In this document: positions 21,002 through 64,000 of the stretch, one piece after another | Numbering within the stretch: the first letter of the stretch is position 1 | Layout: every line of letters begins with the position of its first letter | NCBI GenBank assembly: GCA_036245805.1 | Contig: BTRK01000005.1 | Coordinates: 9,610,001 to 9,674,000 of the forward strand | Direction of reading: 5' to 3' | Source: Pristionchus mayeri | Lineage: Eukaryota > Nematoda > Chromadorea > Rhabditida > Neodiplogasteridae | DNA length: 64,000 bases | Translations under genes and position numbers: made by a program | Notes under the pieces: model-generated | Seen by the model: the letters and a program-made list of their open reading frames with translations, nothing else | What the model was told of the DNA's origin: nothing | Database searches by the model: none

Positions 21002-21705
21002 GTTTCCTGTTTGAGGTTCAAAATATGCAAACGGATCAATTCATATGGGAAAAATGCATTCTATGCACGTCCAACAGTTATTTTAATTTTAAAACAAATT
21101 TTCGGTATTATAGGCTCCGACGATTTGAGAATCATATGCAATTATCCTGAGCGTCAGTACATTGAAAATATAAAGTAAATGGGCATCGAAACCAAGCGAA
21201 GAAAGAATAGGAGCGCTGTGTATGAGCAGATTCCGTGCGAAACTCAGCTTCTACCTCCACTTCTTCTTTAGCCGCTTTCCTTTCGCTCTCACAATACTCT
21301 TCGTCGCCCACTCTCTCTCTCTTTCTCTCCTTCCCTCAGTGTGTATACACAAACTGCACCCGAGACGTCGCACCTGGGCGACGCGGGGAGTGGGAAATGC
21401 GAAATTGCATCATTCTTAGTCGAGGTTATGGAGAATAATCCATTGGTAAATCGGAATTGCAATGAAAGGAGGCAATGTAAATTAATTGAAGAAAGTGAGT
21501 CACAATCCCTTGAGTGATGTAAGTCTCGAAACATTGCCAATGAAAGAGTGAAATAACCAGAAAGAGGGGAGAAAGGTGCAGTGAGTTGCTAGCCAGGGGC
21601 AGAAAGAGAGTGACTTGACTAACAACGAGAGGAGAGAGGGCAACGTGTCGGAGAGGAATAGTCGGATTCGGAAATTGATTTTGTGGTGTATTGAGAGCCT
21701 AGACA

Positions 21706-22545
21706 GTTCAGTTCAATCATTTCCTTACATTTATCGATCAAATAAGTTAGATTACGTTGAAAGAGCACGCACATTACAGACTTCAAAAAATTCGATTTTC
21801 AACCCTCCGATTTTTCCAAGTTTATGAGCATCCAGTTCAGGATTTACCCAGCTATGGAATTGAACTCAAAGTGTAATCAACAGTGGTGACTGACATGAGT
21901 ACATTCTGCCATTATGGGCTCTCCAAATGGTTCCATGACCTTGATTTACATGCTCGAACTTGCTGGATCGCGTTGGTTCAAAAACATCATAATGCTATTT
22001 TGAATGAATTTAAAAGAATATCCGACATTTTTGGTATCTAACAATCATATTTAGCGCAGGAGAGATGGAAAATGTTAAAATTGTGTTCATTTTCAAGACT
22101 GTTCAAAAATTCAAAATCTCAATGTTCAAAAATGTCATATTTTTTTAAACGTTGTTTTTGTTGTTACTGTGAGTATTTTCTATCTTAGTGTAACTCATCA
22201 TATTTATCCCTAATAGAAAAGGGCATAGACTCCTTGAAATTTAGTCAAAATAAAATTATGTTTCATTTGGACCAACGCGATCCATCAAGTTCGAGCATGT
22301 GAATCAAGGGCATGGTACAAACTGGAGAGCCAATAATGGCAGAATGTATTCGTATCAGTCACTACTGTTGATTACACTTTGAGTTCAATTTCATAGCTGT
22401 ATAAATCCTGAACTGGATGCTCACGAACTTGGAAAAATCGGAGGGTTGAAAATCGAATTTTTTGAAGTGTGTAATTTGCGTGCTCTTTCAACGTCATCTA
22501 GCGTCTATGATCGAGAAATTTAAGGAAATGATTGAACTGATCGAA
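21706..22545. repeat. Foldback element, about 840 bp (left arm)
   Basis: Arms at about 21706-22000 and 22262-22545 are reverse complements with scattered mismatches, sharing motifs such as cctccgatttttccaagtt and gatcgcgttgg. The loop is AT-rich with no coding content. It lies between copies B and C, and its mirror is at 63078-63917. Confidence 0.75.
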
Positions 22546-22945
22546 TGGAATGATGAATCTGCGAGATGAGAATTTTTCAATATTTGACATATCATGTTTT
22601 CGAGTTTCGGAGCTATACAGCGGAAAGGGGCCACCCTGAATCCGATTACTATTTTTTCTATATGCGGCTGGAGTTAAACTTCCATAACCTTCTATAAAAT
22701 TCACTTTGTTTGCTACTCACCGAGATGCTATGATTTTATTTGTACTCATAATTTCAGGTTTTCGCTCATATTTTCTGAAATCGAAGTCTTACGGTTTCAC
22801 TTTCAACATAAAAGTTGTTCAAAATAATTTTCCGCTTATTTTGAGCCCACTGCCAACTCTGTAGCGCATCTGGAAGCTGAAATACAGTAGGGCCGGTTGT
22901 AAAACCGGGAAATCCCTAAACGACGGCTCTGGGACCTGTGACCTA

Positions 22946-23859
22946 TTAGGTTGTTGCAAAAGTCCTGTGGAATTTTGATATTTTGCCTTCCATCTTTCTG
23001 TTGGATTGACAGATGAACTTCGGGATATTGATTACTAATGAGACCTTGCATACTTTTACATATGCGCACCCTATCATCATTGTCCAATGAGAGAGGCGAG
23101 AACAGGATCCAGTTAAAATCACGAAAATTCATCCATCGAAAACGCAACATTTTTCAATATTATGTTTCCTCTGAAGCATGAATGCTCAATTCATGGTGGT
23201 TATACGAAGCTCCCACCTTTACCCTATACACACTTTTTCTTATGCATGCTGGAAGTTAGATCATTTCGAGGAATGAGTTGATCTGCAAAATGACTGCATG
23301 TTGCATTTCTGTGTTCATTTTGCATATTTCTGAAAAATGAGGAATTCAGATTTCCTGAAAGGGGAAACAAGCAGGCGCCAATATTTCTTATGAGGAAATT
23401 GCCTCTTCGTGGGAGCATACAGCGTACACATGACGGAGCCTGTACGATTGGTCTTCCATTTAGAAAAGCAGGTACAAGGCACATGCAGCCTGGGTCTGCT
23501 CATATATTTGATATCGTGTGATTTGGTTCAAACCCTCTCACATGACATGTCTAACCTATTTTTTGAAAGAACATCAATGGTACTTCTCACTCAACATTAT
23601 GAAGTTGTTTCATGAATTTTCCCTTCAAATATCTAGATAAATAAATTTAAATCTAAATGTTGTGCTTTTTTTGCAATTGGGTTAATCATAATTGCTTGCG
23701 TTGGTTGCACGATCGGTTTGATTGAAATATACGTGAGCAAAGTTCAAGCGTATCCCTAAACAACACCACGTTGGTTGGCCATTGAGATTTGAGACACGCG
23801 AGTTATGATCGTTCAAAGTACTGACATAAAAAAACCACAAGACTTTTGCAACAACCTAA
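22946..23859. mobile_element. Mariner-like non-autonomous element (left arm)
   Basis: The element begins ttaggttgttgcaaaagtc and ends with the reverse complement of the same motif (about 25 bp with one mismatch), flanked by TA on both sides. That terminal sequence is typical of mariner elements. At 914 bp it is shorter than a full element, and I see no transposase catalytic motifs, so it looks like an internally deleted copy. The mirror copy is at 61764-62677. Confidence 0.75.
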
Positions 23860-24436
23860 TAGATTTTTCAAGAAGTTGGATCTAGTGTATGCTACCACAA
23901 TAATATGAACCGAAACAAAAAATAAAACTTGAAAATTGTTCCCACACACCTCCACTGACTCGTGATACCTGTGATATAGTTACAACTAGTTGTTTAACCT
24001 TTTTACACCACCCGGAAATCCACATTTAGGAGGGTTGAATATTGCGGTCCAAACTATAATTTTATCGTCGGATCCCATATCTTGAAGAGGCGTCAACTTT
24101 GCTCTCACTACACACCAGCATTCCCTTCCGTCCTTATCAGCGTATCATCGATTTATCTCTACCTCTCCTTTTTCGTGTCGCATGTTATCACACTTGCACA
24201 GGAACGGCTGATATTATTTTCTGTTCTCAATTATTTCGTATTGTGTGTTTTCTCCCACCATTTTTTGCGTTTACAATCTGTTACATATTGCGTTCTGCCA
24301 ATTCGCTTTAATCGACGTTAAACGCAATTTGACTGTCATTTAAAAGTTTTAAACGATTCACGCTTTGCGGATCAGTGAACACTACGATATTCTATCATGT
24401 GATCATGTGAAGTGGGAGGAACGAGTGGCACTCATA

Positions 24437-27400
24437 ATGCGCTTTGACACGAGATTCCAGTCGAGTGCGCTGCGGGTGAAGTGAGTAGCAACCTGTCATT
24501 TCGATTTCGTTCGGTGCTCGATTCGATCTTTCCTTTCAGCGCATTTCGCACTAGAGAGATGCAGTCGATGCTGCTGTACGCGGCATACTTATGCACGTGT
24601 CTGGTAAGGATAACAAGTCGGCTTTAGCAAATCAAATCGGTCAGAAGATTAGGATAGAGATTTCCCTTCCAATTTTTGTTACTTTCAGGAAGATCGGGCG
24701 TGGTCCTTTGCTATCTCACTATGCATGCAATTCCTCGGAGGCATTCAGCTCGTCTCAATCGAGCAACTGATTGAAGGACTTGCACAGGTCGACATTTCGC
24801 ATTTCGCATTTTGCGTAGCGTTGGCTTCTTAGGAAATAGTCTTCTCATCCTGGCTTCAGATCTCACTCGAACTCACTCAGAATTAGAGTTGGGGAAACGT
24901 TACCAGGCTCTCGTCACTGTATGCACTAACTTTCTCCTCGATCTAGAGAGTCTAGAGAGTTCTAGAGCGATCCAGAGAGTGCGTAGACTCAAGAGAGTAA
25001 AATATCCTTTCTCGAACTCTAAAAAATCCTAAGGACCGAAACGCCCGCCCGTACTTCTTAGGAAGCCTACCATCTCCCTTTCCTTTTTCGACTAGGAATT
25101 TTTTGAACCTATTTTCCCACTGTTTTTAAACACAGCATGAATACTCCTTTCCCATGAAGACTACATAAATTGAAAGCATACAAAAATGCATTTCCAGATT
25201 GGCTTCAGTGGATCAGTGGGAAGATTGGTAGATTTGAGAAGCGAACGCAAATGGGGTAAATGATATCGGAATGTTGTCTTACTTCTCACTGATGGTTCAT
25301 TAAAGGCATGATCATATGTGTGATTGGCAACAACTTCTCCATGATATCATCTTGCCTACTTTTCCTGTTGTGTCTGCCGATGGAGCGCAGTAATTGGATT
25401 TACGTGAGTGATCTGCTTAATACCCCGTCGGAAACAGAAGCAAACGTTTACTAAACATTCTGAGAAGCCAGGCTTCCCCACCTAACACCGCTGAATGTAT
25501 TCGCTACATCATCTCTGCCTGTCTTTTCTCTCTTCCTGATCCAAAACTCGCACTTCTGCAGACATTGAGTCTTCTCACTGCTCTAGTTCTATGCGCCACA
25601 TGGCGAGTCTTCATGATCGCCGAACGCAATGTACTGGCAAGGTGATAATTGCTGAATTTTATCGCGAATCAGCCATGCGAGACGAATTGCGAGAAAAAAC
25701 GACAATGGGCTCAATTTCGACCGTTGTGTATCAAATTTTGCTTTCATTGCAGCAGTAGTCGATGCTCTATCGATTTGTCTCATATATGAGAGGTGTGAAA
25801 TACGCATTGCATTTTCAGAGATTGGGCACTTGTGTTAGTGAGCGTACGAGGCTCGATGAATCGGCGACTTGCAAGTTTGTATTTCACTCCTGGAGAAAAG
25901 GCAAACATTTCTCATTTTCTAGGAACGAATGCAATTCTGACGTCACTCGATCAGCTCGCCAACGTCCTTTCTCCTCTACTCCTCGGTGCCGTTCTCTCGT
26001 TCGCATCTCTCCAATCGACTTGCATCATTCTCGCAGGTTCGTGCTACAATATCACACAATATTAATTGGATGACACTGGCTCCTCCTCCTTCCCCCCTGA
26101 TCCACCGATCCACTACTCTCATTCCCTTCCGTGCAAGATGATAAAAGCATTGTGTCGGTGGATTCAGTGGGACGGTATTAGAAGGACCATATATTTATCA
26201 TCTTGAACGGAAGGGAATAGAGAAATGGATCGGTGGATCAGGAGGAAATTGAAAGCCACTGTCATCCGACACAATTATACCGCTCGCATCTTCAGGATAT
26301 TCTGCTGCTTCTTTACTTCTGAAGGGCACATTACTGATCACACTCTATGAACGCAATGAGGACTTGCGCACAAAGGTTCTGATAGCTAAACTTTGAAGAA
26401 ACGTTAATAAATTCAGAAAGAACGCAGCCGTACATTGCTAGAGGCGACTGTTGACTCATCGAAAGAATCCGACCGAAAATCATCTCGCATTTCAAACCTA
26501 TTTATTGTTCTCTCAACATACTACTCGCAAACGGTAATTCATCTTATTTTTAGGCACTAGGTCGGATGATCACCGTCGGATGGTAACCTACTGGATGATA
26601 ACCAAAAAATGGACTCTTCTGTAGAACTTTACAGTAGGTTCCCAAAGTCTAAAAAATGATTCCGTAAAAGTTGTACAGAAGGGTTCATTTTTTGGTTATC
26701 ATCCGGTAGGTTACCATCCGACGGTGATCATTCGTCCTAGTGCCTATTTGTATGATGCTTGCAGGTCTTCTCTGCGGCCTTCGGCCTTGCACTCCTGTAC
26801 ATGACCGTGCTCGGATTCAACGGGGTTCGTATTTCACATACTGGTTGAATTATACATGTCTGATTTAAATTAAATGCGAAGATATAGTGCCTAACGTAGA
26901 TTTCGCCCAAGTAAATGCTATATGAGAGATTTTTCAAAAAGTCGCTCAGATGTAAATGTAACCAATGATGTGATGGCAATGTGTTCACATTTTCATTCCA
27001 GTTGGACATTGCCTACGGGGAATCGGTGGGTCTGCCCGAGAACGTGATGGCTTTCTTCCGTTCATTCGGCTCTGTCGCAGGTGGTCTTTGATCTTTGTTG
27101 AAAATTCTCGACGATCGATGGCCAGGCATAGCTGGCGCTTTGATGTACGCTGTCTTCGAGAGGCAGTTCGGCGTCCGACGAACCGGAGTCATCGGGATGA
27201 TGGTACTGTTCAGATCAAAATCTTAAATTCCTGAAGAATACAATAAAGAATATCTGTTAATTTGTTGGTATTATCATCTTAGGATGTCTGCGCGTTAATT
27301 TTCGCCTTTCTCTGAAACTTTTATAGCTTCCTTCAGATCCAAGCGAGTCTTCTATCTTTGTGCGTAGTGTCGATCTGGTTATCAGGATCTCCTTGGAATC

Positions 27401-30206
27401 CCACTGCCTACTTCTCGACGATGACGTCAGTTCTTCGAATATTCCTTAAATAATGCAAAAATGGAGCGGTCATCGGGGGGGGGGGGGGGGACAATTGCCC
27501 AAACGACAATAGCCCAACTCGTTGCCGTTCGCTTGAAATTTGGCGAAGTAACTTGGGAGTTATTTCATTGTAACCACTATATGCTCCGCTATATTTGCAT
27601 ATGTAACTCTTGTTACTAGGCGATCATGAATTTTACAATTCACCCACGACCCGGGGTTCATGGTCCAAAATTGAGAATTTTAGCTGAAAATCATGGCTAG
27701 ATAATCAGAGAGTACCGTAACCAATCGATATTCTAGTACCACAATATCTACGTTATCCCAGTAAAATGGTTATCGATTGGTTACTGCATTTGGTGATTAT
27801 CTAACCATGATTTTCCATTCAAATTGCCAATTTTGGATCATGAACCCCACATACATAGATATGGAGTGAAACTCAAGATCGGCTGGTAAGAGTGACATAT
27901 GCAAATGTAGTGCAGCACGTACTGGTTCCAATGAAACAACTCCCAAGTTGCTTCGCCAAATTCCAAGCGAACGGCGACGAGTTGTGCAATTGTCTTTTGG
28001 GCAATTGTCACCCTCCCCGGTCATCATGTGCACGAGAGTTCGAGAAACGATTCCACGCTCTCTTCATTCTACAAACTCTCTAGACCGGTCGATCGGCGAG
28101 AGAGTGTGTAGAATGAAGAGAGCGTGGTATCGTTTCTCGTACTATAATGTGCAGTGCAACAATGATGCACTAATTCACCGGACCTAGTTTCGCCATCATG
28201 CAATTCGAAGGTGGTCGTCGTGGTGGCATGCTCTGCTTGGCAATTTCGTGTCTTCCCCACAGCCGACGTCTAGCGAAGCGTCCACTCCCCCTCCCGCTCC
28301 TCACGCAAGTGCGCATATAGGTGAGTGGTAAGGTTACAGTAAGAATTCAGGAAACGATACGTCATTGCTTGCACTATTGTTCTATTTGCATCATAGGTGT
28401 CCAGAAATGGCGGCGGGGGGGGGGGGGGGGGGTGCTGCGCTCACATGTGAGGCGGTGCGCAAGGCATGAGTAGGGGGTCATGGAAAAATCGATTTGTAAG
28501 TCATGGTAGATCAAGCCTAAGTACCGTACCCAATCGATAGTACAGTACCAGTAGATACCGTATACCACTACCGTAATCCACGATTATCGCAAACTAACTG
28601 TATTTGTAAAAAGCCCTGGCACCGTGCCCAATCGATTCTACAGTACCCAAGTTACTACCGTAACCCAGTTCCTTTTTTTGCAAACGTTTTTCTAAAAATT
28701 CAAAATCGATCATAAAATGATTCTAGAGTAATGAAATATACGTTAGGATACTTTACAATAATTTAATGCTTGATTTTGGAATTTTAGAAAAATGTTTGAC
28801 CCAAGGAACTGGATCTGATCCAAGGAACTGGGTTACGGTAGTTACTTGGTTATTGTAGAATCGATTGGGCACGGTGCCAGGGCTTTTTAAAAATAAAGTT
28901 AGTTTGCGATAATCGTGGAATACGGTAGTGGTATACGGTATCGGGAGGTACTGTAGAGTCGATTGGTTACGGTACTTTAATTTTTTGAAAATAAAGTTAG
29001 TTCGCGATAATAGCGGGTTACGGTAGTGGTATACGGTATCTACTGGTCCTGTACTATCGATTGGGTACGGTACTTAGGCTTGATCTACCATGACTAACAA
29101 ATCGATTTTTCCATGACCCCCTATACATGCCTTACGCACGCCGCCGGCGTGGACACCCATGATTTGCATGTACTTTTTTCGAACCGTCATTGTACACAAT
29201 TTTCGAATTCTCTAATAAGATTGGACGAAAACTGCAGATTGGTCGACGATGGCATCGTCTGATGGCACGAGCATCGTCTCGATCTTCACATTCCTCATCG
29301 CAATTGCTGCCTCGAGATTTGGTGAGTAAGCGCGGCTTGAAATGCTAAATCACATACACGAATTGAAGATTAAACGGCAAACCGTCAATTTCATTAGGAA
29401 TGCCCCAAACAGAGAGAGTTACAGCATGGAAGCCAAATCATTAGCAGTTTCGAATGAATAACCAGCGATCCGCAGGTCTGTGGATGGCGGATCTCGCGAT
29501 CACTCACATCATGCAAGTCGCCACTCCGGAATCACAGCGAAACACTGTTTTCGGAGTGCAGAATGCAATCTGCCAGACGTTCTCTGTACTAAAAGTGAGC
29601 ATGACACTTCAATATGATGGGGCATTCTGAGCTTTCCTTGTGTATGTGTGTGTTGTCGGTGCTGATTTGCCTAAAATCAGAATGGATAAGCAGGTTAATG
29701 GGCCGGATGCGCCATTGGTATATGAAATATATTATACAAAGTGGCATGAGGCAATAGTTCGAATCAAATCTGAGGTCAATTTTCAGGATGTACTGGTGAT
29801 CGTGCTTCCATCACCAAGCACCTTTGGAATTTGCATTATTATCTCGTACGGCTTCAAGCTCGCAGGTTGCTGCTCGTATCTCTTCTACATAGCAAAGGTG
29901 ATGTCGCTGCGAATGATACGATTCAATATTATGTTGAAACTGCTAACCAAGTGCTCGTGAACATTTCGCATAATACTAAATGTAAAAAACAGCTATAATG
30001 TATAATTTCTTCGAGAATGGGCTTGTAGGAGAGCACTGCTGGGCCAGACTTGATTTGCACGGATTCGGTGACGTATAGAGTGAAAAGTCATGACAATATC
30101 TTACATATTTGATTCTCTAGATTTGCAGTCATCGGCTCAAGCGCGAAAGCTGACGAAAGACCAGGAACTTAGGAAGTTCTCTACAGAGGAAGCGAAGAAT
30201 CTCTGA
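24437..30206 (+). CDS. fpn-1-like: Ferroportin-like iron exporter, copy C
   Basis: Nineteen exons: 24437-24480, 24540-24603, 24689-24787, 25198-25255, 25306-25403, 25562-25641, 25819-25874, 25923-26036, 26296-26375, 26417-26533, 26765-26824, 27002-27080, 27126-27202, 27337-27425, 28211-28320, 29238-29321, 29476-29594, 29787-29897, 30129-30206. They total 1617 bp and 538 residues, with every phase consistent. Human ferroportin is 571 residues. Conserved blocks are EDRAWSFAISLCMQFLGG, SGSVGRLVDLRSERKWG, GNNFSMISSCLLFLLCL, ILTSLDQLANVLSPLLLG, LYMTVLGFNG, FGVRRTGVIGMM, WSSWWHALLGN, LWMADLAITHIMQ and LVIVLPSPSTFGICI. Fe2+ export across the plasma or intestinal membrane is the known family role. 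The first 44-bp exon is the least certain; Met at 24559 is an alternative start. Introns 14 and 15 are swollen to 785 and 917 bp by foldback repeats. The next gene, copy D, lies tail-to-tail. Confidence 0.9.
24899..25032. repeat. Imperfect hairpin element, copy C intron 3
   Basis: The two halves pair imperfectly around ctagagagtctagagagttc. The right outer end (cctttctcgaactct) matches the ends of the ACACTCTCTCG hairpin family. It fills part of the 410 bp third intron of copy C. The mirror is at 60591-60724. Confidence 0.5.
26049..26280. repeat. Hairpin repeat, copy C intron 8
   Basis: The stretch gatccaccgatccact followed by attcccttccgt and agatgataaa returns inverted about 60 bp later. 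The arms are about 75 bp. It makes up almost the whole 259 bp intron between exons 8 and 9 of copy C. The mirror is at 59343-59574. Confidence 0.7.
26552..26749. repeat. MITE of the CACTAGGTCGGATGA family, copy C intron 10
   Basis: This is a nearly complete self-complementary unit of about 198 bp. It starts ggcactaggtcggatgatca and ends with the inverted form (tgatcattcgtcctagtgcc). The inner arms carry gatggtaacctac and ggttatcatcc. Related shorter units lie at 34680, 34823 and 41261. The mirror is at 58874-59071. Confidence 0.75.
27471..28022. repeat. Foldback element, copy C intron 14
   Basis: Arms of about 260 bp face each other, with outer ends gggacaattgccca / gggcaattgtcaccc and inner motifs gtaaccaatcgata / ggttatcgattgg. 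A G homopolymer sits at the left outer end and differs in length between the palindrome arms. The element occupies most of intron 14 of copy C. The mirror is at about 57597-58148. Confidence 0.75.
28042..28145. repeat. Hairpin element with ACACTCTCTCG core, copy C intron 14
   Basis: This is an almost perfect hairpin with ends cgagaaacgat / atcgtttctcg and centre around the palindromic gaccggtcgatcggcg. Stem motifs include cgctctcttcattctac. It lies 20 bp after the preceding foldback in the same intron. The mirror is at 57474-57577. Confidence 0.75.
28400..29140. repeat. Foldback element, copy C intron 15
   Basis: Arms of roughly 270 bp carry repeated units such as gtaccgtacccaatcgat and ggtgccagggctttttaaaa in opposite orientation. 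The repeated gggtacggta / taccgtaccc motif gives a secondary periodicity. A G homopolymer sits near the left end. The element makes up most of the 917 bp intron 15 of copy C. The mirror is at about 56482-57219. Confidence 0.75.
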
Positions 30207-30300
30207 GCAGTCGTCTGACTCACTTTAGTTTCCACGCTCTCTCGTCTCTTTGACTGGCGAGAGAGCGTGTAAACTGAAGAGAGTCAGACCATTGCTCTAG
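30206..30300. repeat. Hairpin element starting at the copy C stop codon
   Basis: The arms gagcagtcgtctgactc and gagtcagaccattgctc enclose the ACACTCTCTCG-type core (cacgctctctcg / cgagagagcgtg). The left end overlaps the last base of the TGA stop of copy C, so the hairpin would form the start of its 3' UTR. The mirror is at 55322-55416. Confidence 0.7.
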
Positions 30301-30312
30301 TCAATGGCATAA

Positions 30313-32181
30313 GAGTGACTATCTGAGAGAACTGAGCAATTTCACCTATGTGCCGTACAGCAAAAAATAAAGTGTTCATTTTAAGATACCCCTCGGCGTA
30401 ACTTTTCACGTAGAGTTCGAAAATCGACCTTAGGAAGCCGTATCTCTGACCCCTGATTTTCTGTGGCGGGCCTCAACGATGAGGTCAGTTTTTGTAAATC
30501 GAGAACGGTTGATCCAAGCCCCATACATAGATAGTAATTCTGACAGAACTCGACGAGATAAGCATTTTTATTGTTGGAAGTGAAAGGCTAGCTCATCTAT
30601 GAAAAAAGTTGAGGCAGTTTTAATTATTTAAATAGTTATTGTGTAAACACTTTTCCCGGGGTGTAATTTTAAATATGTTTATTGGATTCCTCGTGAAAAG
30701 TTACCCCTATGAACAAATTTTCACTCTCGCGAGACAATGATGTTTCCCGAAATGCGGAATAAGGAAGCATGATGAATCACTGAATTTCGAAAATTTCGCG
30801 CCATTGCGATTTCAACATTTTACCAATTATGAAACGTTGCCAGTACTGTACTTCAACTTTTTATGCATAATTGGATAGTATTCTCTTTAATAGACATGCC
30901 TTACGATATCAACAAATCATTTTTTTCATATGCCAATTTCTCAAATTTGCACGTTGCAAACTCAACATTTCGAGACCACTTGACGCTGTAACTGTGGCCA
31001 TGCTGTAGTATGCCTCGACCTGAGTAAAAATTGGTGGAACAGTCCAACTCCAATATATCGGGGCTCCAGTTATTGACGCACGAATATGGCTTAAATGAAA
31101 ATGTCCGAAATATTTAAATTCATTTTGGGAGTTAATTTTGAGAATTCTCATTTAATATTGTCGTAAATAATGTTTTCGTAACCTGAGGAATCAAATACGT
31201 CTGGAAAAGCGATCGTTTGGACAATTTTTCAAAAATCGAAATTTTCAAATGTCTAAAATTTCGGAAATTTTGAAAAGGCAAGAGGTGTGTATTTTTGCAT
31301 ATAGTTTATCCATCAGATTACAAAAACATTATTTACAACAATATTAAATGAGAATTCTCAAAATTAACTCCCAAAATGAATTTAAATATTTCGGACATTT
31401 TCATTTAAGCCATATTCGGGCGTCAATAACTGGAGCCCCGATATATTCGAATTGGACTGTTCCACCAATTTTTACTCAGATCGATGCATACTACAGCATG
31501 GCCACAGTTACAGCGTCAATTGGTCTCGAAATGTTGAGTTTGCAACGTGCAAATTTGAGAAATTGGCATATGAAAAAAATGATTTGTTGATATCGTAAGG
31601 CATGTCTATTAAAGAGAATACTATCCAATTATGCATAAAAAGTTGAAGTACAGTACTGGCAACGTTTCCTAATTGGTAAAATGTTGAAATCGCAATGGTG
31701 CGAAATTTTCGAAATTCAGTGATTCATCATGCTTCCTTATTCCGCATTTCGGGAAACATCATTGTCTCGCGATTTTGCGAGTGAAAATTTGTTCCTAGGG
31801 GTAACTTTTCACGAGGAATCCAATAAACATATTTAAAATTACACCCCGGGAAAAGTGTTTACACAATAACTATTTAAATATTTAAAACTGCCTCAACTTT
31901 TTTCACAGATGAGCTAGCCTTTCACTTCCAACATAAAAAATGCGAGTTCTTTCGAGTTCTTTCAGAATTACTATCTATATATGGGGCTTGGATCAACCGT
32001 TCACGATTTACAAAAACCGACCTCAGCGTTGAGGTGCGCCACAGAAAATCAGAGGTCAGAGATACGGCTTCCTAAGGTCGATTTTCGAACTCTACGTGAA
32101 AAGATACCCCTAGGACATTATTTATTTGAAATTTCATTTTTTGCTGTACGGCCTGAGGTAAGTCCTCTCAGATAGTCACTC
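30313..32181. repeat. Large foldback element, about 1.87 kb
   Basis: The ends are the inverted pair agtgactatctgagaga / tctcagatagtcact. Arms of about 870 bp run inward to a short loop near 31200-31310. Open frames within the arms translate to the same peptide on opposite strands (MRILKINSQNEFKYFGHF); they reflect repeat symmetry, not genes. An AATAAA at 30366, the first I see after copy C, lies in this element. The mirror is at 53441-55309. Nothing is recognised in 32182-32529. Confidence 0.85.
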
Positions 32182-32529
32182 ATAATGATGCATAAAATTC
32201 TTTCAAAGAAGGCGTCGTACAAGTAATGTGATGCCTCAAAAATGCAACGTGGACACATTTCTGGCATAGTTCTGATTCAGTTTTCGGTCGTAATATTATT
32301 AATACGCACACAGTTCTAGACAGAATCCCATTCGTAATTCTTTCTCCCTCCTAATATCATAGATTCCAAATATAATCAGTGAGTTTTTTTTTCGTATCTT
32401 GTGTGTGCACAAGTTGTATGGACAACTCGTCTTCTTCACTGCAATTAGATCACAGACAAGTGCTTATCATATTCAAGTCTTGAACAGTGAAATTGATAAA
32501 AATTTCAAAATCCCGAATTCGTGATTGTG

Positions 32530-41594: not shown

Positions 41595-41745
41595 ACATGA
41601 TTGAGCGACTGAAAGAGAAATACGTGATCATGTCACGACGATTTCTATTAAATATCGCAATTCGGAAAATTGTTTCTTATTTGGCAATACTGATGACGAT
41701 TGGTGAATAGTGCTTGCACATATTATGTGCGCAGATCTGCTTTTA

Positions 41746-43804: not shown

Positions 43805-44092
43805 TGATTAAAATCGCTCGAATTCATCGCTCGAGCGAGTCCCAGAAATGATCGCTTGAGCGATTGGCGCTCGAGCGCTCGTCTAAATTAACCGCTCGAG
43901 CGGCGAGCGCTCGCTAGCAACGCTCGAGCGAACAACACTAGTAAAAGCAGATCTGCGCACATAATATGTGCAAGCACTATTCACCAATCGTCATCAGTAT
44001 TGCCAAATAAGAAACAATTTTCCGAATTGCGATATTTAATAGAAATCGTCGTGACATGATCACGTATTTCTCTTTCAGTCGCTCAATCATGT

Positions 44093-53092: not shown

Positions 53093-53440
53093 CACAATCA
53101 CGAATTCGGGATTTTGAAATTTTTATCAATTTCACTGTTCAAGACTTGAATATGATAAGCACTTGTCTGTGATCTAATTGCAGTGAAGAAGACGAGTTGT
53201 CCATACAACTTGTGCACACACAAGATACGAAAAAAAAACTCACTGATTATATTTGGAATCTATGATATTAGGAGGGAGAAAGAATTACGAATGGGATTCT
53301 GTCTAGAACTGTGTGCGTATTAATAATATTACGACCGAAAACTGAATCAGAACTATGCCAGAAATGTGTCCACGTTGCATTTTTGAGGCATCACATTACT
53401 TGTACGACGCCTTCTTTGAAAGAATTTTATGCATCATTAT

Positions 53441-55309
53441 GAGTGACTATCTGAGAGGACTTACCTCAGGCCGTACAGCAAAAAATGAAATTTCAAATAA
53501 ATAATGTCCTAGGGGTATCTTTTCACGTAGAGTTCGAAAATCGACCTTAGGAAGCCGTATCTCTGACCTCTGATTTTCTGTGGCGCACCTCAACGCTGAG
53601 GTCGGTTTTTGTAAATCGTGAACGGTTGATCCAAGCCCCATATATAGATAGTAATTCTGAAAGAACTCGAAAGAACTCGCATTTTTTATGTTGGAAGTGA
53701 AAGGCTAGCTCATCTGTGAAAAAAGTTGAGGCAGTTTTAAATATTTAAATAGTTATTGTGTAAACACTTTTCCCGGGGTGTAATTTTAAATATGTTTATT
53801 GGATTCCTCGTGAAAAGTTACCCCTAGGAACAAATTTTCACTCGCAAAATCGCGAGACAATGATGTTTCCCGAAATGCGGAATAAGGAAGCATGATGAAT
53901 CACTGAATTTCGAAAATTTCGCACCATTGCGATTTCAACATTTTACCAATTAGGAAACGTTGCCAGTACTGTACTTCAACTTTTTATGCATAATTGGATA
54001 GTATTCTCTTTAATAGACATGCCTTACGATATCAACAAATCATTTTTTTCATATGCCAATTTCTCAAATTTGCACGTTGCAAACTCAACATTTCGAGACC
54101 AATTGACGCTGTAACTGTGGCCATGCTGTAGTATGCATCGATCTGAGTAAAAATTGGTGGAACAGTCCAATTCGAATATATCGGGGCTCCAGTTATTGAC
54201 GCCCGAATATGGCTTAAATGAAAATGTCCGAAATATTTAAATTCATTTTGGGAGTTAATTTTGAGAATTCTCATTTAATATTGTTGTAAATAATGTTTTT
54301 GTAATCTGATGGATAAACTATATGCAAAAATACACACCTCTTGCCTTTTCAAAATTTCCGAAATTTTAGACATTTGAAAATTTCGATTTTTGAAAAATTG
54401 TCCAAACGATCGCTTTTCCAGACGTATTTGATTCCTCAGGTTACGAAAACATTATTTACGACAATATTAAATGAGAATTCTCAAAATTAACTCCCAAAAT
54501 GAATTTAAATATTTCGGACATTTTCATTTAAGCCATATTCGTGCGTCAATAACTGGAGCCCCGATATATTGGAGTTGGACTGTTCCACCAATTTTTACTC
54601 AGGTCGAGGCATACTACAGCATGGCCACAGTTACAGCGTCAAGTGGTCTCGAAATGTTGAGTTTGCAACGTGCAAATTTGAGAAATTGGCATATGAAAAA
54701 AATGATTTGTTGATATCGTAAGGCATGTCTATTAAAGAGAATACTATCCAATTATGCATAAAAAGTTGAAGTACAGTACTGGCAACGTTTCATAATTGGT
54801 AAAATGTTGAAATCGCAATGGCGCGAAATTTTCGAAATTCAGTGATTCATCATGCTTCCTTATTCCGCATTTCGGGAAACATCATTGTCTCGCGAGAGTG
54901 AAAATTTGTTCATAGGGGTAACTTTTCACGAGGAATCCAATAAACATATTTAAAATTACACCCCGGGAAAAGTGTTTACACAATAACTATTTAAATAATT
55001 AAAACTGCCTCAACTTTTTTCATAGATGAGCTAGCCTTTCACTTCCAACAATAAAAATGCTTATCTCGTCGAGTTCTGTCAGAATTACTATCTATGTATG
55101 GGGCTTGGATCAACCGTTCTCGATTTACAAAAACTGACCTCATCGTTGAGGCCCGCCACAGAAAATCAGGGGTCAGAGATACGGCTTCCTAAGGTCGATT
55201 TTCGAACTCTACGTGAAAAGTTACGCCGAGGGGTATCTTAAAATGAACACTTTATTTTTTGCTGTACGGCACATAGGTGAAATTGCTCAGTTCTCTCAGA
55301 TAGTCACTC
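53441..55309. repeat. Large foldback element, about 1.87 kb (right arm)
   Basis: Mirror of 30313-32181, with the same agtgactatctgaga ends. It begins about 350 bp after the preceding foldback and ends 13 bp before the hairpin (55322-55416) that abuts the C' stop codon. Confidence 0.85.
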
Positions 55310-55321
55310 TTATGCCATTTA

Positions 55322-55416
55322 CTAGAGCAATGGTCTGACTCTCTTCAGTTTACACGCTCTCTCGCCAGTCAAAGAGACGAGAGAGCGTGGAAACTAAAGT
55401 GAGTCAGACGACTGCT
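55322..55416. repeat. Hairpin element at the C' stop codon (right arm)
   Basis: Mirror of 30206-30300, with the same placement of the stem base on the last base of the stop codon. Confidence 0.7.
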
Positions 55417-58400
55417 CAGAGATTCTTCGCTTCCTCTGTAGAGAACTTCCTAAGTTCCTGGTCTTTCGTCAGCTTTCGCGCTTGAGCCGATGACTGCAAA
55501 TCTAGAGAATCAAATATGTAAGATATTGTCATGACTTTTCACTCTATACGTCACCGAATCCGTGCAAATCAAGTCTGGCCCAGCAGTGCTCTCCTACAAG
55601 CCCATTCTCGAAGAAATTATACATTATAGCTGTTTTTTACATTTAGTATTATGCGAAATGTTCACGAGCACTTGGTTAGCAGTTTCAACATAATATTGAA
55701 TCGTATCATTCGCAGCGACATCACCTTTGCTATGTAGAAGAGATACGAGCAGCAACCTGCGAGCTTGAAGCCGTACGAGATAATAATGCAAATTCCAAAG
55801 GTGCTTGGTGATGGAAGCACGATCACCAGTACATCCTGAAAATTGACCTCAGATTTGATTCGAACTATTGCCTCATGCCACTTTGTATAATATATTTCAT
55901 ATACCAATGGCGCATCCGGCCCATTAACCTGCTTATCCATTCTGATTTTAGGCAAATCAGCACCGACAACACACACATACACAAGGAAAGCTCAGAATGC
56001 CCCATCATATTGAAGTGTCATGCTCACTTTTAGTACAGAGAACGTCTGGCAGATTGCATTCTGCACTCCGAAAACAGTGTTTCGCTGTGATTCCGGAGTG
56101 GCGACTTGCATGATGTGAGTGATCGCGAGATCCGCCATCCACAGACCTGCGGATCGCTGGTTATTCATTCGAAACTGCTAATGATTTGGCTTCCATGCTG
56201 TAACTCTCTCTGTTTGGGGCATTCCTAATGAAATTGACGGTTTGCCGTTTAATCTTCAATTCGTGTATGTGATTTAGCATTTCAAGCCGCGCTTACTCAC
56301 CAAATCTCGAGGCAGCAATTGCGATGAGGAATGTGAAGATCGAGACGATGCTCGTGCCATCAGACGATGCCATCGTCGACCAATCTGCAGTTTTCGTCCA
56401 ATCTTATTAGAGAATTCGAAAATTGTGTACAATGACGGTTCGAAAAAAGTACATGCAAATCATGGGTGTCCACGCCGGCGGCGTGCGTAAGGCATGTATA
56501 GGGGGTCATGGAAAAATCGATTTGTTAGTCATGGTAGATCAAGCCTAAGTACCGTACCCAATCGATAGTACAGGACCAGTAGATACCGTATACCACTACC
56601 GTAACCCGCTATTATCGCGAACTAACTTTATTTTCAAAAAATTAAAGTACCGTAACCAATCGACTCTACAGTACTCCCCGATACCGTATACCACTACCGT
56701 ATTCCACGATTATCGCAAACTAACTTTATTTTTAAAAAGCCCTGGCACCGTGCCCAATCGATTCTACAATAACCAAGTAACTACCGTAACCCAGTTCCTT
56801 GGATCAGATCCAGTTCCTTGGGTCAAACATTTTTCTAAAATTCCAAAATCAAGCATTAAATTATTGTAAAGTATCCTAACGTATATTTCATTACTCTAGA
56901 ATCATTTTATGATCGATTTTGAATTTTTAGAAAAACGTTTGCAAAAAAAGGAACTGGGTTACGGTAGTAACTTGGGTACTGTAGAATCGATTGGGCACGG
57001 TGCCAGGGCTTTTTACAAATACAGTTAGTTTGCGATAATCGTGGATTACGGTAGTGGTATACGGTATCTACTGGTACTGTACTATCGATTGGGTACGGTA
57101 CTTAGGCTTGATCTACCATGACTTACAAATCGATTTTTCCATGACCCCCTACTCATGCCTTGCGCACCGCCTCACATGTGAGCGCAGCACCCCCCCCCCC
57201 CCCCGCCGCCATTTCTGGACACCTATGATGCAAATAGAACAATAGTGCAAGCAATGACGTATCGTTTCCTGAATTCTTACTGTAACCTTACCACTCACCT
57301 ATATGCGCACTTGCGTGAGGAGCGGGAGGGGGAGTGGACGCTTCGCTAGACGTCGGCTGTGGGGAAGACACGAAATTGCCAAGCAGAGCATGCCACCACG
57401 ACGACCACCTTCGAATTGCATGATGGCGAAACTAGGTCCGGTGAATTAGTGCATCATTGTTGCACTGCACATTATAGTACGAGAAACGATACCACGCTCT
57501 CTTCATTCTACACACTCTCTCGCCGATCGACCGGTCTAGAGAGTTTGTAGAATGAAGAGAGCGTGGAATCGTTTCTCGAACTCTCGTGCACATGATGACC
57601 GGGGAGGGTGACAATTGCCCAAAAGACAATTGCACAACTCGTCGCCGTTCGCTTGGAATTTGGCGAAGCAACTTGGGAGTTGTTTCATTGGAACCAGTAC
57701 GTGCTGCACTACATTTGCATATGTCACTCTTACCAGCCGATCTTGAGTTTCACTCCATATCTATGTATGTGGGGTTCATGATCCAAAATTGGCAATTTGA
57801 ATGGAAAATCATGGTTAGATAATCACCAAATGCAGTAACCAATCGATAACCATTTTACTGGGATAACGTAGATATTGTGGTACTAGAATATCGATTGGTT
57901 ACGGTACTCTCTGATTATCTAGCCATGATTTTCAGCTAAAATTCTCAATTTTGGACCATGAACCCCGGGTCGTGGGTGAATTGTAAAATTCATGATCGCC
58001 TAGTAACAAGAGTTACATATGCAAATATAGCGGAGCATATAGTGGTTACAATGAAATAACTCCCAAGTTACTTCGCCAAATTTCAAGCGAACGGCAACGA
58101 GTTGGGCTATTGTCGTTTGGGCAATTGTCCCCCCCCCCCCCCCCCCCCGATGACCGCTCCATTTTTGCATTATTTAAGGAATATTCGAAGAACTGACGTC
58201 ATCGTCGAGAAGTAGGCAGTGGGATTCCAAGGAGATCCTGATAACCAGATCGACACTACGCACAAAGATAGAAGACTCGCTTGGATCTGAAGGAAGCTAT
58301 AAAAGTTTCAGAGAAAGGCGAAAATTAACGCGCAGACATCCTAAGATGATAATACCAACAAATTAACAGATATTCTTTATTGTATTCTTCAGGAATTTAA

Positions 58401-61186
58401 GATTTTGATCTGAACAGTACCATCATCCCGATGACTCCGGTTCGTCGGACGCCGAACTGCCTCTCGAAGACAGCGTACATCAAAGCGCCAGCTATGCCTG
58501 GCCATCGATCGTCGAGAATTTTCAACAAAGATCAAAGACCACCTGCGACAGAGCCGAATGAACGGAAGAAAGCCATCACGTTCTCGGGCAGACCCACCGA
58601 TTCCCCGTAGGCAATGTCCAACTGGAATGAAAATGTGAACACATTGCCATCACATCATTGGTTACATTTACATCTGAGCGACTTTTTGAAAAATCTCTCA
58701 TATAGCATTTACTTGGGCGAAATCTACGTTAGGCACTATATCTTCGCATTTAATTTAAATCAGACATGTATAATTCAACCAGTATGTGAAATACGAACCC
58801 CGTTGAATCCGAGCACGGTCATGTACAGGAGTGCAAGGCCGAAGGCCGCAGAGAAGACCTGCAAGCATCATACAAATAGGCACTAGGACGAATGATCACC
58901 GTCGGATGGTAACCTACCGGATGATAACCAAAAAATGAACCCTTCTGTACAACTTTTACGGAATCATTTTTTAGACTTTGGGAACCTACTGTAAAGTTCT
59001 ACAGAAGAGTCCATTTTTTGGTTATCATCCAGTAGGTTACCATCCGACGGTGATCATCCGACCTAGTGCCTAAAAATAAGATGAATTACCGTTTGCGAGT
59101 AGTATGTTGAGAGAACAATAAATAGGTTTGAAATGCGAGATGATTTTCGGTCGGATTCTTTCGATGAGTCAACAGTCGCCTCTAGCAATGTACGGCTGCG
59201 TTCTTTCTGAATTTATTAACGTTTCTTCAAAGTTTAGCTATCAGAACCTTTGTGCGCAAGTCCTCATTGCGTTCATAGAGTGTGATCAGTAATGTGCCCT
59301 TCAGAAGTAAAGAAGCAGCAGAATATCCTGAAGATGCGAGCGGTATAATTGTGTCGGATGACAGTGGCTTTCAATTTCCTCCTGATCCACCGATCCATTT
59401 CTCTATTCCCTTCCGTTCAAGATGATAAATATATGGTCCTTCTAATACCGTCCCACTGAATCCACCGACACAATGCTTTTATCATCTTGCACGGAAGGGA
59501 ATGAGAGTAGTGGATCGGTGGATCAGGGGGGAAGGAGGAGGAGCCAGTGTCATCCAATTAATATTGTGTGATATTGTAGCACGAACCTGCGAGAATGATG
59601 CAAGTCGATTGGAGAGATGCGAACGAGAGAACGGCACCGAGGAGTAGAGGAGAAAGGACGTTGGCGAGCTGATCGAGTGACGTCAGAATTGCATTCGTTC
59701 CTAGAAAATGAGAAATGTTTGCCTTTTCTCCAGGAGTGAAATACAAACTTGCAAGTCGCCGATTCATCGAGCCTCGTACGCTCACTAACACAAGTGCCCA
59801 ATCTCTGAAAATGCAATGCGTATTTCACACCTCTCATATATGAGACAAATCGATAGAGCATCGACTACTGCTGCAATGAAAGCAAAATTTGATACACAAC
59901 GGTCGAAATTGAGCCCATTGTCGTTTTTTCTCGCAATTCGTCTCGCATGGCTGATTCGCGATAAAATTCAGCAATTATCACCTTGCCAGTACATTGCGTT
60001 CGGCGATCATGAAGACTCGCCATGTGGCGCATAGAACTAGAGCAGTGAGAAGACTCAATGTCTGCAGAAGTGCGAGTTTTGGATCAGGAAGAGAGAAAAG
60101 ACAGGCAGAGATGATGTAGCGAATACATTCAGCGGTGTTAGGTGGGGAAGCCTGGCTTCTCAGAATGTTTAGTAAACGTTTGCTTCTGTTTCCGACGGGG
60201 TATTAAGCAGATCACTCACGTAAATCCAATTACTGCGCTCCATCGGCAGACACAACAGGAAAAGTAGGCAAGATGATATCATGGAGAAGTTGTTGCCAAT
60301 CACACATATGATCATGCCTTTAATGAACCATCAGTGAGAAGTAAGACAACATTCCGATATCATTTACCCCATTTGCGTTCGCTTCTCAAATCTACCAATC
60401 TTCCCACTGATCCACTGAAGCCAATCTGGAAATGCATTTTTGTATGCTTTCAATTTATGTAGTCTTCATGGGAAAGGAGTATTCATGCTGTGTTTAAAAA
60501 CAGTGGGAAAATAGGTTCAAAAAATTCCTAGTCGAAAAAGGAAAGGGAGATGGTAGGCTTCCTAAGAAGTACGGGCGGGCGTTTCGGTCCTTAGGATTTT
60601 TTAGAGTTCGAGAAAGGATATTTTACTCTCTTGAGTCTACGCACTCTCTGGATCGCTCTAGAACTCTCTAGACTCTCTAGATCGAGGAGAAAGTTAGTGC
60701 ATACAGTGACGAGAGCCTGGTAACGTTTCCCCAACTCTAATTCTGAGTGAGTTCGAGTGAGATCTGAAGCCAGGATGAGAAGACTATTTCCTAAGAAGCC
60801 AACGCTACGCAAAATGCGAAATGCGAAATGTCGACCTGTGCAAGTCCTTCAATCAGTTGCTCGATTGAGACGAGCTGAATGCCTCCGAGGAATTGCATGC
60901 ATAGTGAGATAGCAAAGGACCACGCCCGATCTTCCTGAAAGTAACAAAAATTGGAAGGGAAATCTCTATCCTAATCTTCTGACCGATTTGATTTGCTAAA
61001 GCCGACTTGTTATCCTTACCAGACACGTGCATAAGTATGCCGCGTACAGCAGCATCGACTGCATCTCTCTAGTGCGAAATGCGCTGAAAGGAAAGATCGA
61101 ATCGAGCACCGAACGAAATCGAAATGACAGGTTGCTACTCACTTCACCCGCAGCGCACTCGACTGGAATCTCGTGTCAAAGCGCAT
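55416..61186 (-). CDS. fpn-1-like: Ferroportin-like iron exporter, copy C' (right arm)
   Basis: Mirror twin of copy C, with 19 exons in transcript order: 61186-61143, 61083-61020, 60934-60836, 60425-60368, 60317-60220, 60061-59982, 59804-59749, 59700-59587, 59327-59248, 59206-59090, 58858-58799, 58621-58543, 58497-58421, 58286-58198, 57408-57299, 56384-56301, 56146-56028, 55835-55725, 55493-55416. It predicts 538 residues. I found no coding difference from copy C in the segments compared. The two visible differences are G-run lengths in introns 14 and 15. It faces D' tail-to-tail and would share Fe2+ export function with C. If both arms are real, this gene dose is doubled. Confidence 0.88.
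56482..57219. repeat. Foldback element, copy C' intron 15 (right arm)
   Basis: Mirror of 28400-29140. The terminal C run (G on the gene strand) is three bases shorter than in the left arm. Confidence 0.75.
57474..58148. repeat. Hairpin plus foldback elements, copy C' intron 14 (right arm)
   Basis: Mirror of 27471-28145: the ACACTCTCTCG-core hairpin (57474-57577) followed by the gggcaattgtc-ended foldback (57597-58148). The terminal C run is four bases longer here than the G run of the left arm. Confidence 0.75.
58874..59071. repeat. MITE of the CACTAGGTCGGATGA family (right arm)
   Basis: Mirror of 26552-26749, in intron 10 of copy C'. Confidence 0.75.
59343..59574. repeat. Hairpin repeat, copy C' intron 8 (right arm)
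   Basis: Mirror of 26049-26280. Confidence 0.7.
60591..60724. repeat. Imperfect hairpin, copy C' intron 3 (right arm)
   Basis: Mirror of 24899-25032. Confidence 0.5.
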
Positions 61187-61763
61187 TATGAGTGCCACTC
61201 GTTCCTCCCACTTCACATGATCACATGATAGAATATCGTAGTGTTCACTGATCCGCAAAGCGTGAATCGTTTAAAACTTTTAAATGACAGTCAAATTGCG
61301 TTTAACGTCGATTAAAGCGAATTGGCAGAACGCAATATGTAACAGATTGTAAACGCAAAAAATGGTGGGAGAAAACACACAATACGAAATAATTGAGAAC
61401 AGAAAATAATATCAGCCGTTCCTGTGCAAGTGTGATAACATGCGACACGAAAAAGGAGAGGTAGAGATAAATCGATGATACGCTGATAAGGACGGAAGGG
61501 AATGCTGGTGTGTAGTGAGAGCAAAGTTGACGCCTCTTCAAGATATGGGATCCGACGATAAAATTATAGTTTGGACCGCAATATTCAACCCTCCTAAATG
61601 TGGATTTCCGGGTGGTGTAAAAAGGTTAAACAACTAGTTGTAACTATATCACAGGTATCACGAGTCAGTGGAGGTGTGTGGGAACAATTTTCAAGTTTTA
61701 TTTTTTGTTTCGGTTCATATTATTGTGGTAGCATACACTAGATCCAACTTCTTGAAAAATCTA

Positions 61764-62677
61764 TTAGGTTGTTGCAAAAGTCTTGTGGTTTTTTTATGTC
61801 AGTACTTTGAACGATCATAACTCGCGTGTCTCAAATCTCAATGGCCAACCAACGTGGTGTTGTTTAGGGATACGCTTGAACTTTGCTCACGTATATTTCA
61901 ATCAAACCGATCGTGCAACCAACGCAAGCAATTATGATTAACCCAATTGCAAAAAAAGCACAACATTTAGATTTAAATTTATTTATCTAGATATTTGAAG
62001 GGAAAATTCATGAAACAACTTCATAATGTTGAGTGAGAAGTACCATTGATGTTCTTTCAAAAAATAGGTTAGACATGTCATGTGAGAGGGTTTGAACCAA
62101 ATCACACGATATCAAATATATGAGCAGACCCAGGCTGCATGTGCCTTGTACCTGCTTTTCTAAATGGAAGACCAATCGTACAGGCTCCGTCATGTGTACG
62201 CTGTATGCTCCCACGAAGAGGCAATTTCCTCATAAGAAATATTGGCGCCTGCTTGTTTCCCCTTTCAGGAAATCTGAATTCCTCATTTTTCAGAAATATG
62301 CAAAATGAACACAGAAATGCAACATGCAGTCATTTTGCAGATCAACTCATTCCTCGAAATGATCTAACTTCCAGCATGCATAAGAAAAAGTGTGTATAGG
62401 GTAAAGGTGGGAGCTTCGTATAACCACCATGAATTGAGCATTCATGCTTCAGAGGAAACATAATATTGAAAAATGTTGCGTTTTCGATGGATGAATTTTC
62501 GTGATTTTAACTGGATCCTGTTCTCGCCTCTCTCATTGGACAATGATGATAGGGTGCGCATATGTAAAAGTATGCAAGGTCTCATTAGTAATCAATATCC
62601 CGAAGTTCATCTGTCAATCCAACAGAAAGATGGAAGGCAAAATATCAAAATTCCACAGGACTTTTGCAACAACCTAA
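61764..62677. mobile_element. Mariner-like non-autonomous element (right arm)
   Basis: Mirror of 22946-23859, with TA-flanked ttaggttgttgcaaaagtc ends in both orientations and no transposase visible. It lies upstream of copy C'. I see no gene in 61187-61763. Confidence 0.75.
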
Positions 62678-63077
62678 TAGGTCACAGGTCCCAGAGCCGT
62701 CGTTTAGGGATTTCCCGGTTTTACAACCGGCCCTACTGTATTTCAGCTTCCAGATGCGCTACAGAGTTGGCAGTGGGCTCAAAATAAGCGGAAAATTATT
62801 TTGAACAACTTTTATGTTGAAAGTGAAACCGTAAGACTTCGATTTCAGAAAATATGAGCGAAAACCTGAAATTATGAGTACAAATAAAATCATAGCATCT
62901 CGGTGAGTAGCAAACAAAGTGAATTTTATAGAAGGTTATGGAAGTTTAACTCCAGCCGCATATAGAAAAAATAGTAATCGGATTCAGGGTGGCCCCTTTC
63001 CGCTGTATAGCTCCGAAACTCGAAAACATGATATGTCAAATATTGAAAAATTCTCATCTCGCAGATTCATCATTCCA

Positions 63078-63917
63078 TTCGATCAGTTCAATCATTTCCT
63101 TAAATTTCTCGATCATAGACGCTAGATGACGTTGAAAGAGCACGCAAATTACACACTTCAAAAAATTCGATTTTCAACCCTCCGATTTTTCCAAGTTCGT
63201 GAGCATCCAGTTCAGGATTTATACAGCTATGAAATTGAACTCAAAGTGTAATCAACAGTAGTGACTGATACGAATACATTCTGCCATTATTGGCTCTCCA
63301 GTTTGTACCATGCCCTTGATTCACATGCTCGAACTTGATGGATCGCGTTGGTCCAAATGAAACATAATTTTATTTTGACTAAATTTCAAGGAGTCTATGC
63401 CCTTTTCTATTAGGGATAAATATGATGAGTTACACTAAGATAGAAAATACTCACAGTAACAACAAAAACAACGTTTAAAAAAATATGACATTTTTGAACA
63501 TTGAGATTTTGAATTTTTGAACAGTCTTGAAAATGAACACAATTTTAACATTTTCCATCTCTCCTGCGCTAAATATGATTGTTAGATACCAAAAATGTCG
63601 GATATTCTTTTAAATTCATTCAAAATAGCATTATGATGTTTTTGAACCAACGCGATCCAGCAAGTTCGAGCATGTAAATCAAGGTCATGGAACCATTTGG
63701 AGAGCCCATAATGGCAGAATGTACTCATGTCAGTCACCACTGTTGATTACACTTTGAGTTCAATTCCATAGCTGGGTAAATCCTGAACTGGATGCTCATA
63801 AACTTGGAAAAATCGGAGGGTTGAAAATCGAATTTTTTGAAGTCTGTAATGTGCGTGCTCTTTCAACGTAATCTAACTTATTTGATCGATAAATGTAAGG
63901 AAATGATTGAACTGAAC
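63078..63917. repeat. Foldback element, about 840 bp (right arm)
   Basis: Mirror of 21706-22545. It is the last identifiable unit before the window edge. Beyond it the arm still matches the left side. No gene is visible in 62678-63077 or 63918-64000. Confidence 0.75.
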
Positions 63918-64000
63918 TGTCTAGGCTCTCAATACACCACAAAATCAATTTCCGAATCCGACTATTCCTCTCCGACACGTTGCCCTCTCTCCTCTCGTTG

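What the first reader, a model, noticed from the sequence alone, without database searches (positions are those of the whole stretch)
21623..64000. Giant near-perfect palindrome: two arms of at least 20 kb around a 1.9 kb spacer
Seen directly: 21623-41882 recurs reverse-complemented at 43805-64000, with only a handful of substitutions and indels by eye, and the match is still running at the window edge. It carries two whole genes per arm. Palindromes of this size and identity are known from sex chromosomes, where arm-to-arm gene conversion keeps them alike, and from recent amplifications. Alternatively, it could be an assembly artefact. The unique spacer and non-random indels argue for a real structure, but that is inference.
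Basis: partly seen in the sequence, partly recalled or inferred. Interest (0 to 1): 0.88.

Follow-up and report, generated by a model that had tools for sequence, protein, structure and literature searches.

The report
Thirty-kilobase iron-exporter gene palindrome in worm
A roundworm chromosome carries a 30,000-letter stretch of iron-exporter-like genes followed by its own near-perfect mirror image, probably born by an inverted copying event and then apparently kept alike by one arm overwriting the other, in a species reported to have no sex chromosomes.

Summary
The palindrome is in the assembly and is larger than reported: left arm 11591-41882, single-copy spacer 41883-43804, right arm 43805-73308 (9.3 kb past the window). 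Aligned bases are 99.95% identical. The genome is Pristionchus mayeri, a selfing nematode whose sexes are published as genomically identical, so a sex-limited-chromosome reading fails. Each arm carries ferroportin-like (SLC40) genes g2, g3, g4 and the 3' part of g1, in alternating orientation. The left arm is ancestral: its inner edge lies in an intact dispersed hairpin element that the right arm cuts in half, and its outer edge lies in an intact g1 exon that the right arm cuts before entering a ~239-kb satellite. The right arm also lost ~730 bp of g2, with a 10-bp templated filler. A third copy (window 11591-32651), placed on contig C4, shares the right arm's deletion and satellite junction, yet is about 0.2-1.3% diverged by segment, while the two arms differ by 0.05%. 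Arm-to-arm gene conversion after an older inverted duplication explains this best. Exon E14 of g1-g3 shows conversion independently. No reads or C4 letters could be examined, and the C4 copy may be a misplaced allelic contig.

The parts
11591..41882 (+). left arm of the palindrome (30,292 bp), ancestral copy
   Evidence: polarity
41883..43804 (.). single-copy spacer, 1922 bp
43805..64000 (-). right arm (inverted copy); continues beyond the window to 73308 (L005:9308), where satellite begins
41747..42048 (+). intact dispersed hairpin element (MITE-like) straddling the left inner junction; the right arm begins inside it at the equivalent of 41882
   Evidence: 24 listed matches on C1-C6 other than the window run contiguously from query position 50 or less to 349 or more; the right-arm piece C5:9653805-9653987 covers only 1-183
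8855..13795 (+). g1, ferroportin-like gene (first to last exon found); the outer end of the palindrome (11591) falls inside its exon E12 (11554-11646)
14274..21001 (-). g2, ferroportin-like gene; exon E7 (about 17406-17293) has no AG acceptor; the right-arm copy lost E9 and most of E7
24559..29897 (+). g3, ferroportin-like gene
34936..41567 (-). g4, ferroportin-like gene
16661..17393 (.). left-arm segment absent from the right arm and from the C4 copy; in the right arm replaced by the 10-bp filler TTATATCATA, which repeats the sequence 19 bp upstream
11869..12918 (+). mariner-like transposase remnant between exons E12 and E14 of g1, present in both arms and in the C4 copy, with many dispersed relatives; DDE_3 match is below Pfam's cut-off
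44120..50752 (+). g4', mirror copy of g4 (coordinates projected through the arm alignment)
55725..61063 (-). g3', mirror copy of g3 (coordinates projected through the arm alignment)

Best explanation
This is a segmental inverted duplication of a nematode ferroportin cluster. Shown from sequence: an ancestral left arm, a 1.9-kb single-copy spacer, and a derived right arm that starts in the middle of a hairpin element and ends inside a g1 exon directly against a satellite array. Inferred: the chromosome broke or the fork stalled at the hairpin/spacer, synthesis or joining turned back along the sister or the same chromatid for 30 kb (fold-back or template-switch type), and the far end was joined to satellite. 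Inferred, with indirect evidence: after the right arm had its satellite junction and its g2 deletion, a copy of its outer part split off (now placed on C4), and gene conversion between the two arms of the C5 palindrome then erased most point differences while leaving the deletion, the junction and some small indels.
For: Arms and spacer. Left arm ancestral: hairpin element intact at 41747-42048 and contiguous in 24 listed copies elsewhere; g1 reads through 11591 as one exon. Right-arm deletion with templated filler. The C4 copy shares the deletion (6 bp between the two aligned pieces in both), the 2-bp shortening at 12250 (1808 bp in both, 1810 in the left arm) and the end at 11591 next to satellite. 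C4 divergence from bit scores: 0.19-1.3 mismatch equivalents per 100 bp by segment, against 14 mismatches in 29.5 kb between the arms. Arm differences are uneven: 1 of 12 substitution events in the outer 15.1 kb, 11 in the inner 14.3 kb, p = 0.002. Exon E14 of g1-g3: fourfold sites identical at 17 of 18, 18 of 19 and 19 of 19 against 52-59% in the other exons, with random-like flanks.
Against: By eye neither junction shows microhomology, whereas human fold-back junctions had 2-8 bp in 13 of the 18 non-repeat cases and insertions in the other five (PMC3907307, passages). The C4 match ends inside repeats at both ends, as a misplaced haplotig would. Small indels (12250, 20168) that conversion could have erased persist. 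The profile search lists g1 and g2 exon matches in the C4 copy but none for g3, although one search aligns that stretch at 99%; unexplained. The outer/inner split in the p = 0.002 test was chosen after seeing the data. No reads were seen.
Confidence: 0.6

Rival explanations
1. A very recent inverted duplication without gene conversion. The arms are alike only because they are young (about 0.05% divergence), and the C4 copy is long-branched for another reason: error-prone copying, a fast region, or a separate older duplication from which two patches (the end with satellite, and the deletion) were moved into the right arm.
For: Arm divergence is low throughout. With three copies the distances alone fit a long C4 branch. 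Small indels that conversion could have erased persist (12250, 20168).
Against: Needs roughly a tenfold or greater rate excess on C4, or at least two ectopic transfers that reproduce the deletion and the junction. Conversion within this cluster is seen independently in exon E14.
Confidence: 0.25
2. Assembly artefact: falsely duplicated or chimeric sequence (missed-adapter or amplification palindrome, or haplotype copies joined head to head).
For: Palindromic chimeras are a known product of whole-genome amplification (PMC6218980, abstract in search listing). No reads were available. There is a 500-N gap in the satellite at 181987-182486, and the C4 copy may itself be a misplaced contig.
Against: 1.9-kb unique spacer, private indels, unequal outer ends. 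The right arm's deletion and outer end recur in a second, diverged copy. The published HiFi preparation, from about 300 plates, describes no amplification (section 18). Arm differences are spaced closer than the 10-kb minimum read length.
Confidence: 0.1
3. Relic of a sex-chromosome palindrome: C5 might hold part of the ancestral X or of an XY pair, and the palindrome might have been favoured there.
For: P. mayeri carries a NigonE-NigonX fusion and probably descends from an XY ancestor (PMC11544036 sections 8 and 13).
Against: No genomic differences between sexes today (section 9). The cargo is ferroportin-like, not a recognised germline gene. Which Nigon element C5 carries did not complete.
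Confidence: 0.04

Closest known systems
C. elegans hsp-16 inverted repeat (hsp16-1/hsp16-48 modules)
   Same: Two gene modules as an inverted repeat around a short unique spacer (416 bp), for which gene conversion was favoured over recent duplication because flanks are diverged (PMC3966223, passages)
   Different: 1.9-kb modules rather than ~30-kb arms; different genes; no satellite junction in the passages seen
Gene-converting palindromes of mammalian sex chromosomes
   Same: Large arms over 99% identical, with frequent arm-to-arm gene conversion (PMC8981503, abstract in search listing)
   Different: Here in a nematode without sex-differentiated chromosomes, with ferroportin-like cargo; conversion only inferred
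Human inverted duplications with a disomic spacer (fold-back mechanism)
   Same: Single-copy spacer of kilobase size (766-70,466 bp, median 3,428 bp in 21 sequenced junctions; PMC3907307, passages) between direct and inverted copies
   Different: No inverted microhomology seen at the inner junction here; arms about 30 kb; nematode chromosomes are generally holocentric (PMC9071541, passages)
Ferroportin (SLC40A1, Pfam FPN1, PF06963)
   Same: Exon pieces score above the Pfam cut-off; the joined g3 model matches a solved ferroportin at E 9.2e-35; closest proteins carry FPN1 and several are named solute carrier family 40
   Different: Cluster of three close paralogues plus g4 in alternating orientation; transport function not tested

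Membership tests
Sex-chromosome-type gene-conversion palindrome | Inverted arms of 10 kb or more with over 99% identity and a short unique spacer | tested here: met
Sex-chromosome-type gene-conversion palindrome | Located on a sex chromosome | tested here: not met
   From the paper only: P. mayeri sexes have identical genomes (PMC11544036 section 9); ancestral-X content of C5 not determined
Sex-chromosome-type gene-conversion palindrome | Arm-to-arm gene conversion | tested here: inconclusive
   Indirect support from the C4 copy; no letters of C4, no population data
Fold-back inverted duplication with disomic spacer | Kilobase-size single-copy spacer between direct and inverted copies | tested here: met
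   1922 bp
Fold-back inverted duplication with disomic spacer | Inverted microhomology of 2 bp or more, or inserted sequence, at the spacer/inversion junction | tested here: not met
   0 bp by eye, no insertion recognisable; a hairpin element lies at the junction
Fold-back inverted duplication with disomic spacer | Inverted copy joined to different sequence at its far end | tested here: met
   73308/73309 passes from a g1 exon into satellite
Ferroportin (SLC40) | FPN1 profile match above the Pfam cut-off | tested here: met
   5 of 10 pieces given to (two further suspected ferroportin pieces gave none; two matched Pkinase and one DDE_3, all three below their cut-offs); 12 of 23 genome matches lie in this cluster; 0 of 14 control genomes matched
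Ferroportin (SLC40) | Iron export activity | not testable with these tools
   needs a transport assay
Sequencing/assembly palindrome artefact | Arms identical with little or no unique spacer | tested here: not met

The most novel reading that the evidence does not exclude
A 30-kb gene palindrome in a self-fertilising nematode without sex chromosomes has been maintained by long-tract arm-to-arm gene conversion: it is older than its identity suggests, as dated by an escaped copy of its right end and satellite on another chromosome, and it keeps doubled copies of an iron-exporter-like cluster that had earlier grown by repeated inverted duplication.
Probability: 0.5. Interest if true: 0.7.

Novelty: new member of a known kind. 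Interest (0 to 1): 0.55.

Why it matters
To my knowledge (recalled, and in line with the abstracts listed) large conversion-maintained palindromes are known mainly from sex chromosomes, and arguments for why they exist lean on the lack of a pairing partner. A case in a species whose sexes have the same genome would show that this condition is not needed. P. mayeri selfs, can be crossed, has several strains, and CRISPR works in it (PMC11544036, abstract and section 9), so arm-to-arm conversion could be measured directly.

Tried and rejected
Rfam (gathering threshold) and tRNA scans of the window found nothing. Sex-limited chromosome: rejected on the paper's coverage data. Right arm as ancestor: rejected because it halves a dispersed hairpin element and a g1 exon that are intact on the left. 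Nigon identity of C5: the marker search (COE family, PF16422) did not complete, and a passage search in PMC9297572 did not help. Literature: searches for ferroportin with nematode gene expansion (2 papers), nematode palindromes (15 of 100 listed), P. mayeri (and 10 papers) and Pristionchus duplications (10 of 618 listed) showed no title or abstract describing this palindrome, and the main text of the genome paper has no word beginning 'palindrom' or 'inverted'. That does not prove absence from print.
Full report
WHERE IT IS. The window is C5:9610001-9674000 of a 290,818,952-base genome in 73 contigs. The organism follows: the closest local-gene proteins are Pristionchus mayeri records PMAYCL1PPCAC_21944, 21946 and 21948, on a contig of 50,323,401 bases, the length of C5. 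The published P. mayeri assembly is 290.8 Mb in six chromosomes (PMC11544036 section 7). Of that paper I saw the abstract, sections 7, 8, 9, 13 and 18, and passages.

STRUCTURE. Self-comparison confirms the inverted repeat. With flanks added it spans 11591-41882 and 43805-73308 around a 1922-bp spacer. The three main blocks hold 14 mismatches in 29,501 columns; by position there are 12 substitution events and 7 indels. The spacer has one full-length match in the genome search, itself. The right arm ends at 73308 against a satellite with a 15-bp core (CGGATTTCCGTCGAA) that runs to about 312.4 kb in window coordinates, with a 500-N gap at 181987-182486. The satellite flips orientation near 77.6 and 86.6 kb, and its first 4.2 kb form their own inverted repeat at 99.06%. 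The left arm ends against mostly unique DNA.

GENES. Exon pieces match Pfam FPN1, ferroportin (5 of 10 pieces given). g3 exons were set by hand. The other three genes were found by a script that looked for homologous open exons with AG and GT or GC ends, so their splice sites are not independent evidence. The result: g1 8855-13795 (+), g2 21001-14274 (-), g3 24559-29897 (+), g4 41567-34936 (-), with 13, 12, 13 and 13 exons. Stretches between E7 and E9, between E12 and E14, and the C terminus, present in the NCBI model P0001, were not modelled. A tree of 21 proteins groups g1-g3 with their two NCBI records (100/98) and leaves g4 elsewhere. Coding identity is 81-86% among g1-g3 and 68-70% to g4 (unequal exons and E1, E6, E12 left out). 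So the arm already held an alternating +,-,+,- cluster, and the palindrome mirrors it. g2 lacks the AG acceptor before E7. In the right arm a deletion removes E9 and most of E7 of g2, and g1 is cut inside E12.

POLARITY. At the inner left junction a dispersed hairpin element is intact (41747-42048): 24 listed matches elsewhere run contiguously across it, while the right arm carries only query positions 1-183, ending at 41882. At the outer end, g1 exon E12 (11554-11646) runs through 11591 in the left arm; in the right arm it stops there and satellite follows. In the right arm, 16661-17393 is replaced by TTATATCATA, a repeat of the sequence 19 bp upstream. Such a templated filler is typical of polymerase-theta end joining (recalled, not from a call). 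All three features make the left arm the older form.

THE THIRD COPY. Searches with arm segments find one further long match, C4:4050300-4070671, equivalent to window 11591-32651. Nothing comparable on C4 was listed for 33900-41882 or for the spacer. It ends exactly at 11591, with satellite matches from 4070698 to 4076441 beside it (list cut, so a lower bound), which change strand after about 4.2 kb as on C5. It lacks the same segment of g2, with 6 bp between the aligned pieces in both, and is 1808 bp where the right arm is 1808 and the left 1810. So it shares right-arm states. Yet by bit score it differs from the left-arm query by 0.72, 0.42, 0.19, 0.71, 1.06 and 1.3 mismatch equivalents per 100 bp in six successive, partly overlapping segments (indels counted in, including those shared with the right arm). 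In the same region the two C5 arms differ by 3 substitution events plus indels. If the right arm and C4 copy share an ancestor that already had deletion and junction, the two arms must be at least as old as that split; their near identity then calls for gene conversion or for a much faster C4 branch. The distances alone cannot separate these. One oddity: the FPN1 profile search lists g1 and g2 exon matches in the C4 copy but none for g3, although one search aligns that stretch at 99%.

SECOND SIGN OF CONVERSION. Exon E14 of g1, g2 and g3 is 115-117 of 119 identical, with fourfold sites 17/18, 18/19 and 19/19 the same, against 53/101, 86/146 and 53/102 in the other comparable exons (Fisher p 0.0004, 0.001, 0.00002; the pairs are not independent). 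The 60 bases on either side match at 15-24 of 60. g4 shares only 4/14, 3/14 and 4/15 fourfold sites in this exon, so a general constraint is unlikely. Conversion tracts of this length are usual in C. elegans paralogues (mean 117 bp in one study; PMC3966223, passages).

UNEVEN ARM DIVERGENCE. One of 12 substitution events lies in the outer 15.1 kb and 11 in the inner 14.3 kb (p = 0.002); the largest gap without substitutions has p = 0.001. The split point was chosen after seeing the data.

MECHANISM. A kilobase single-copy spacer is the mark of fold-back inverted duplications in people (PMC3907307, passages). Here neither junction shows microhomology by eye (for the outer one the satellite's original neighbour is unknown), so the strict microhomology-primed version is not met; breakage in the loop of a hairpin element is the likelier trigger. 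[quoted passage not shown] These steps are inferred.

LIMITS. No reads were seen. The C4 copy ends in repeats on both sides and could be an allelic contig placed wrongly; the conversion argument would still hold, since an allele of the right arm would then be more distant than the opposite arm. 

Noticed in passing
17979-20534: A 2.56-kb element between exons E2 and E3 of g2 has eight near-full-length copies at 94-99% elsewhere in the list, plus partial ones, so it looks recently mobile; type not identified.
   Followed up: no
30310-32184 and 32530-33890: Self-palindromic hairpin elements (90% and 83% arm identity) with many dispersed relatives; the C4 copy ends inside the second one.
   Followed up: partly
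L005:9309 onward (window frame 73309 to about 312400): A roughly 239-kb satellite of a 15-bp core with orientation flips and a scaffold gap; the listed matches of one 501-base probe lie only here and in a small block on C4 (list cut).
   Followed up: partly
1818-4056: Protein-kinase-like exons upstream of the ferroportin cluster; two pieces match Pkinase below its cut-off.
   Followed up: no
L002:3298-8332 (window frame -26702 to -21668): Another inverted repeat in the left flank, 1.9-kb arms at 99.6%.
   Followed up: no
104-816: Inverted pair of 182-bp repeats, 92.9% identical.
   Followed up: no
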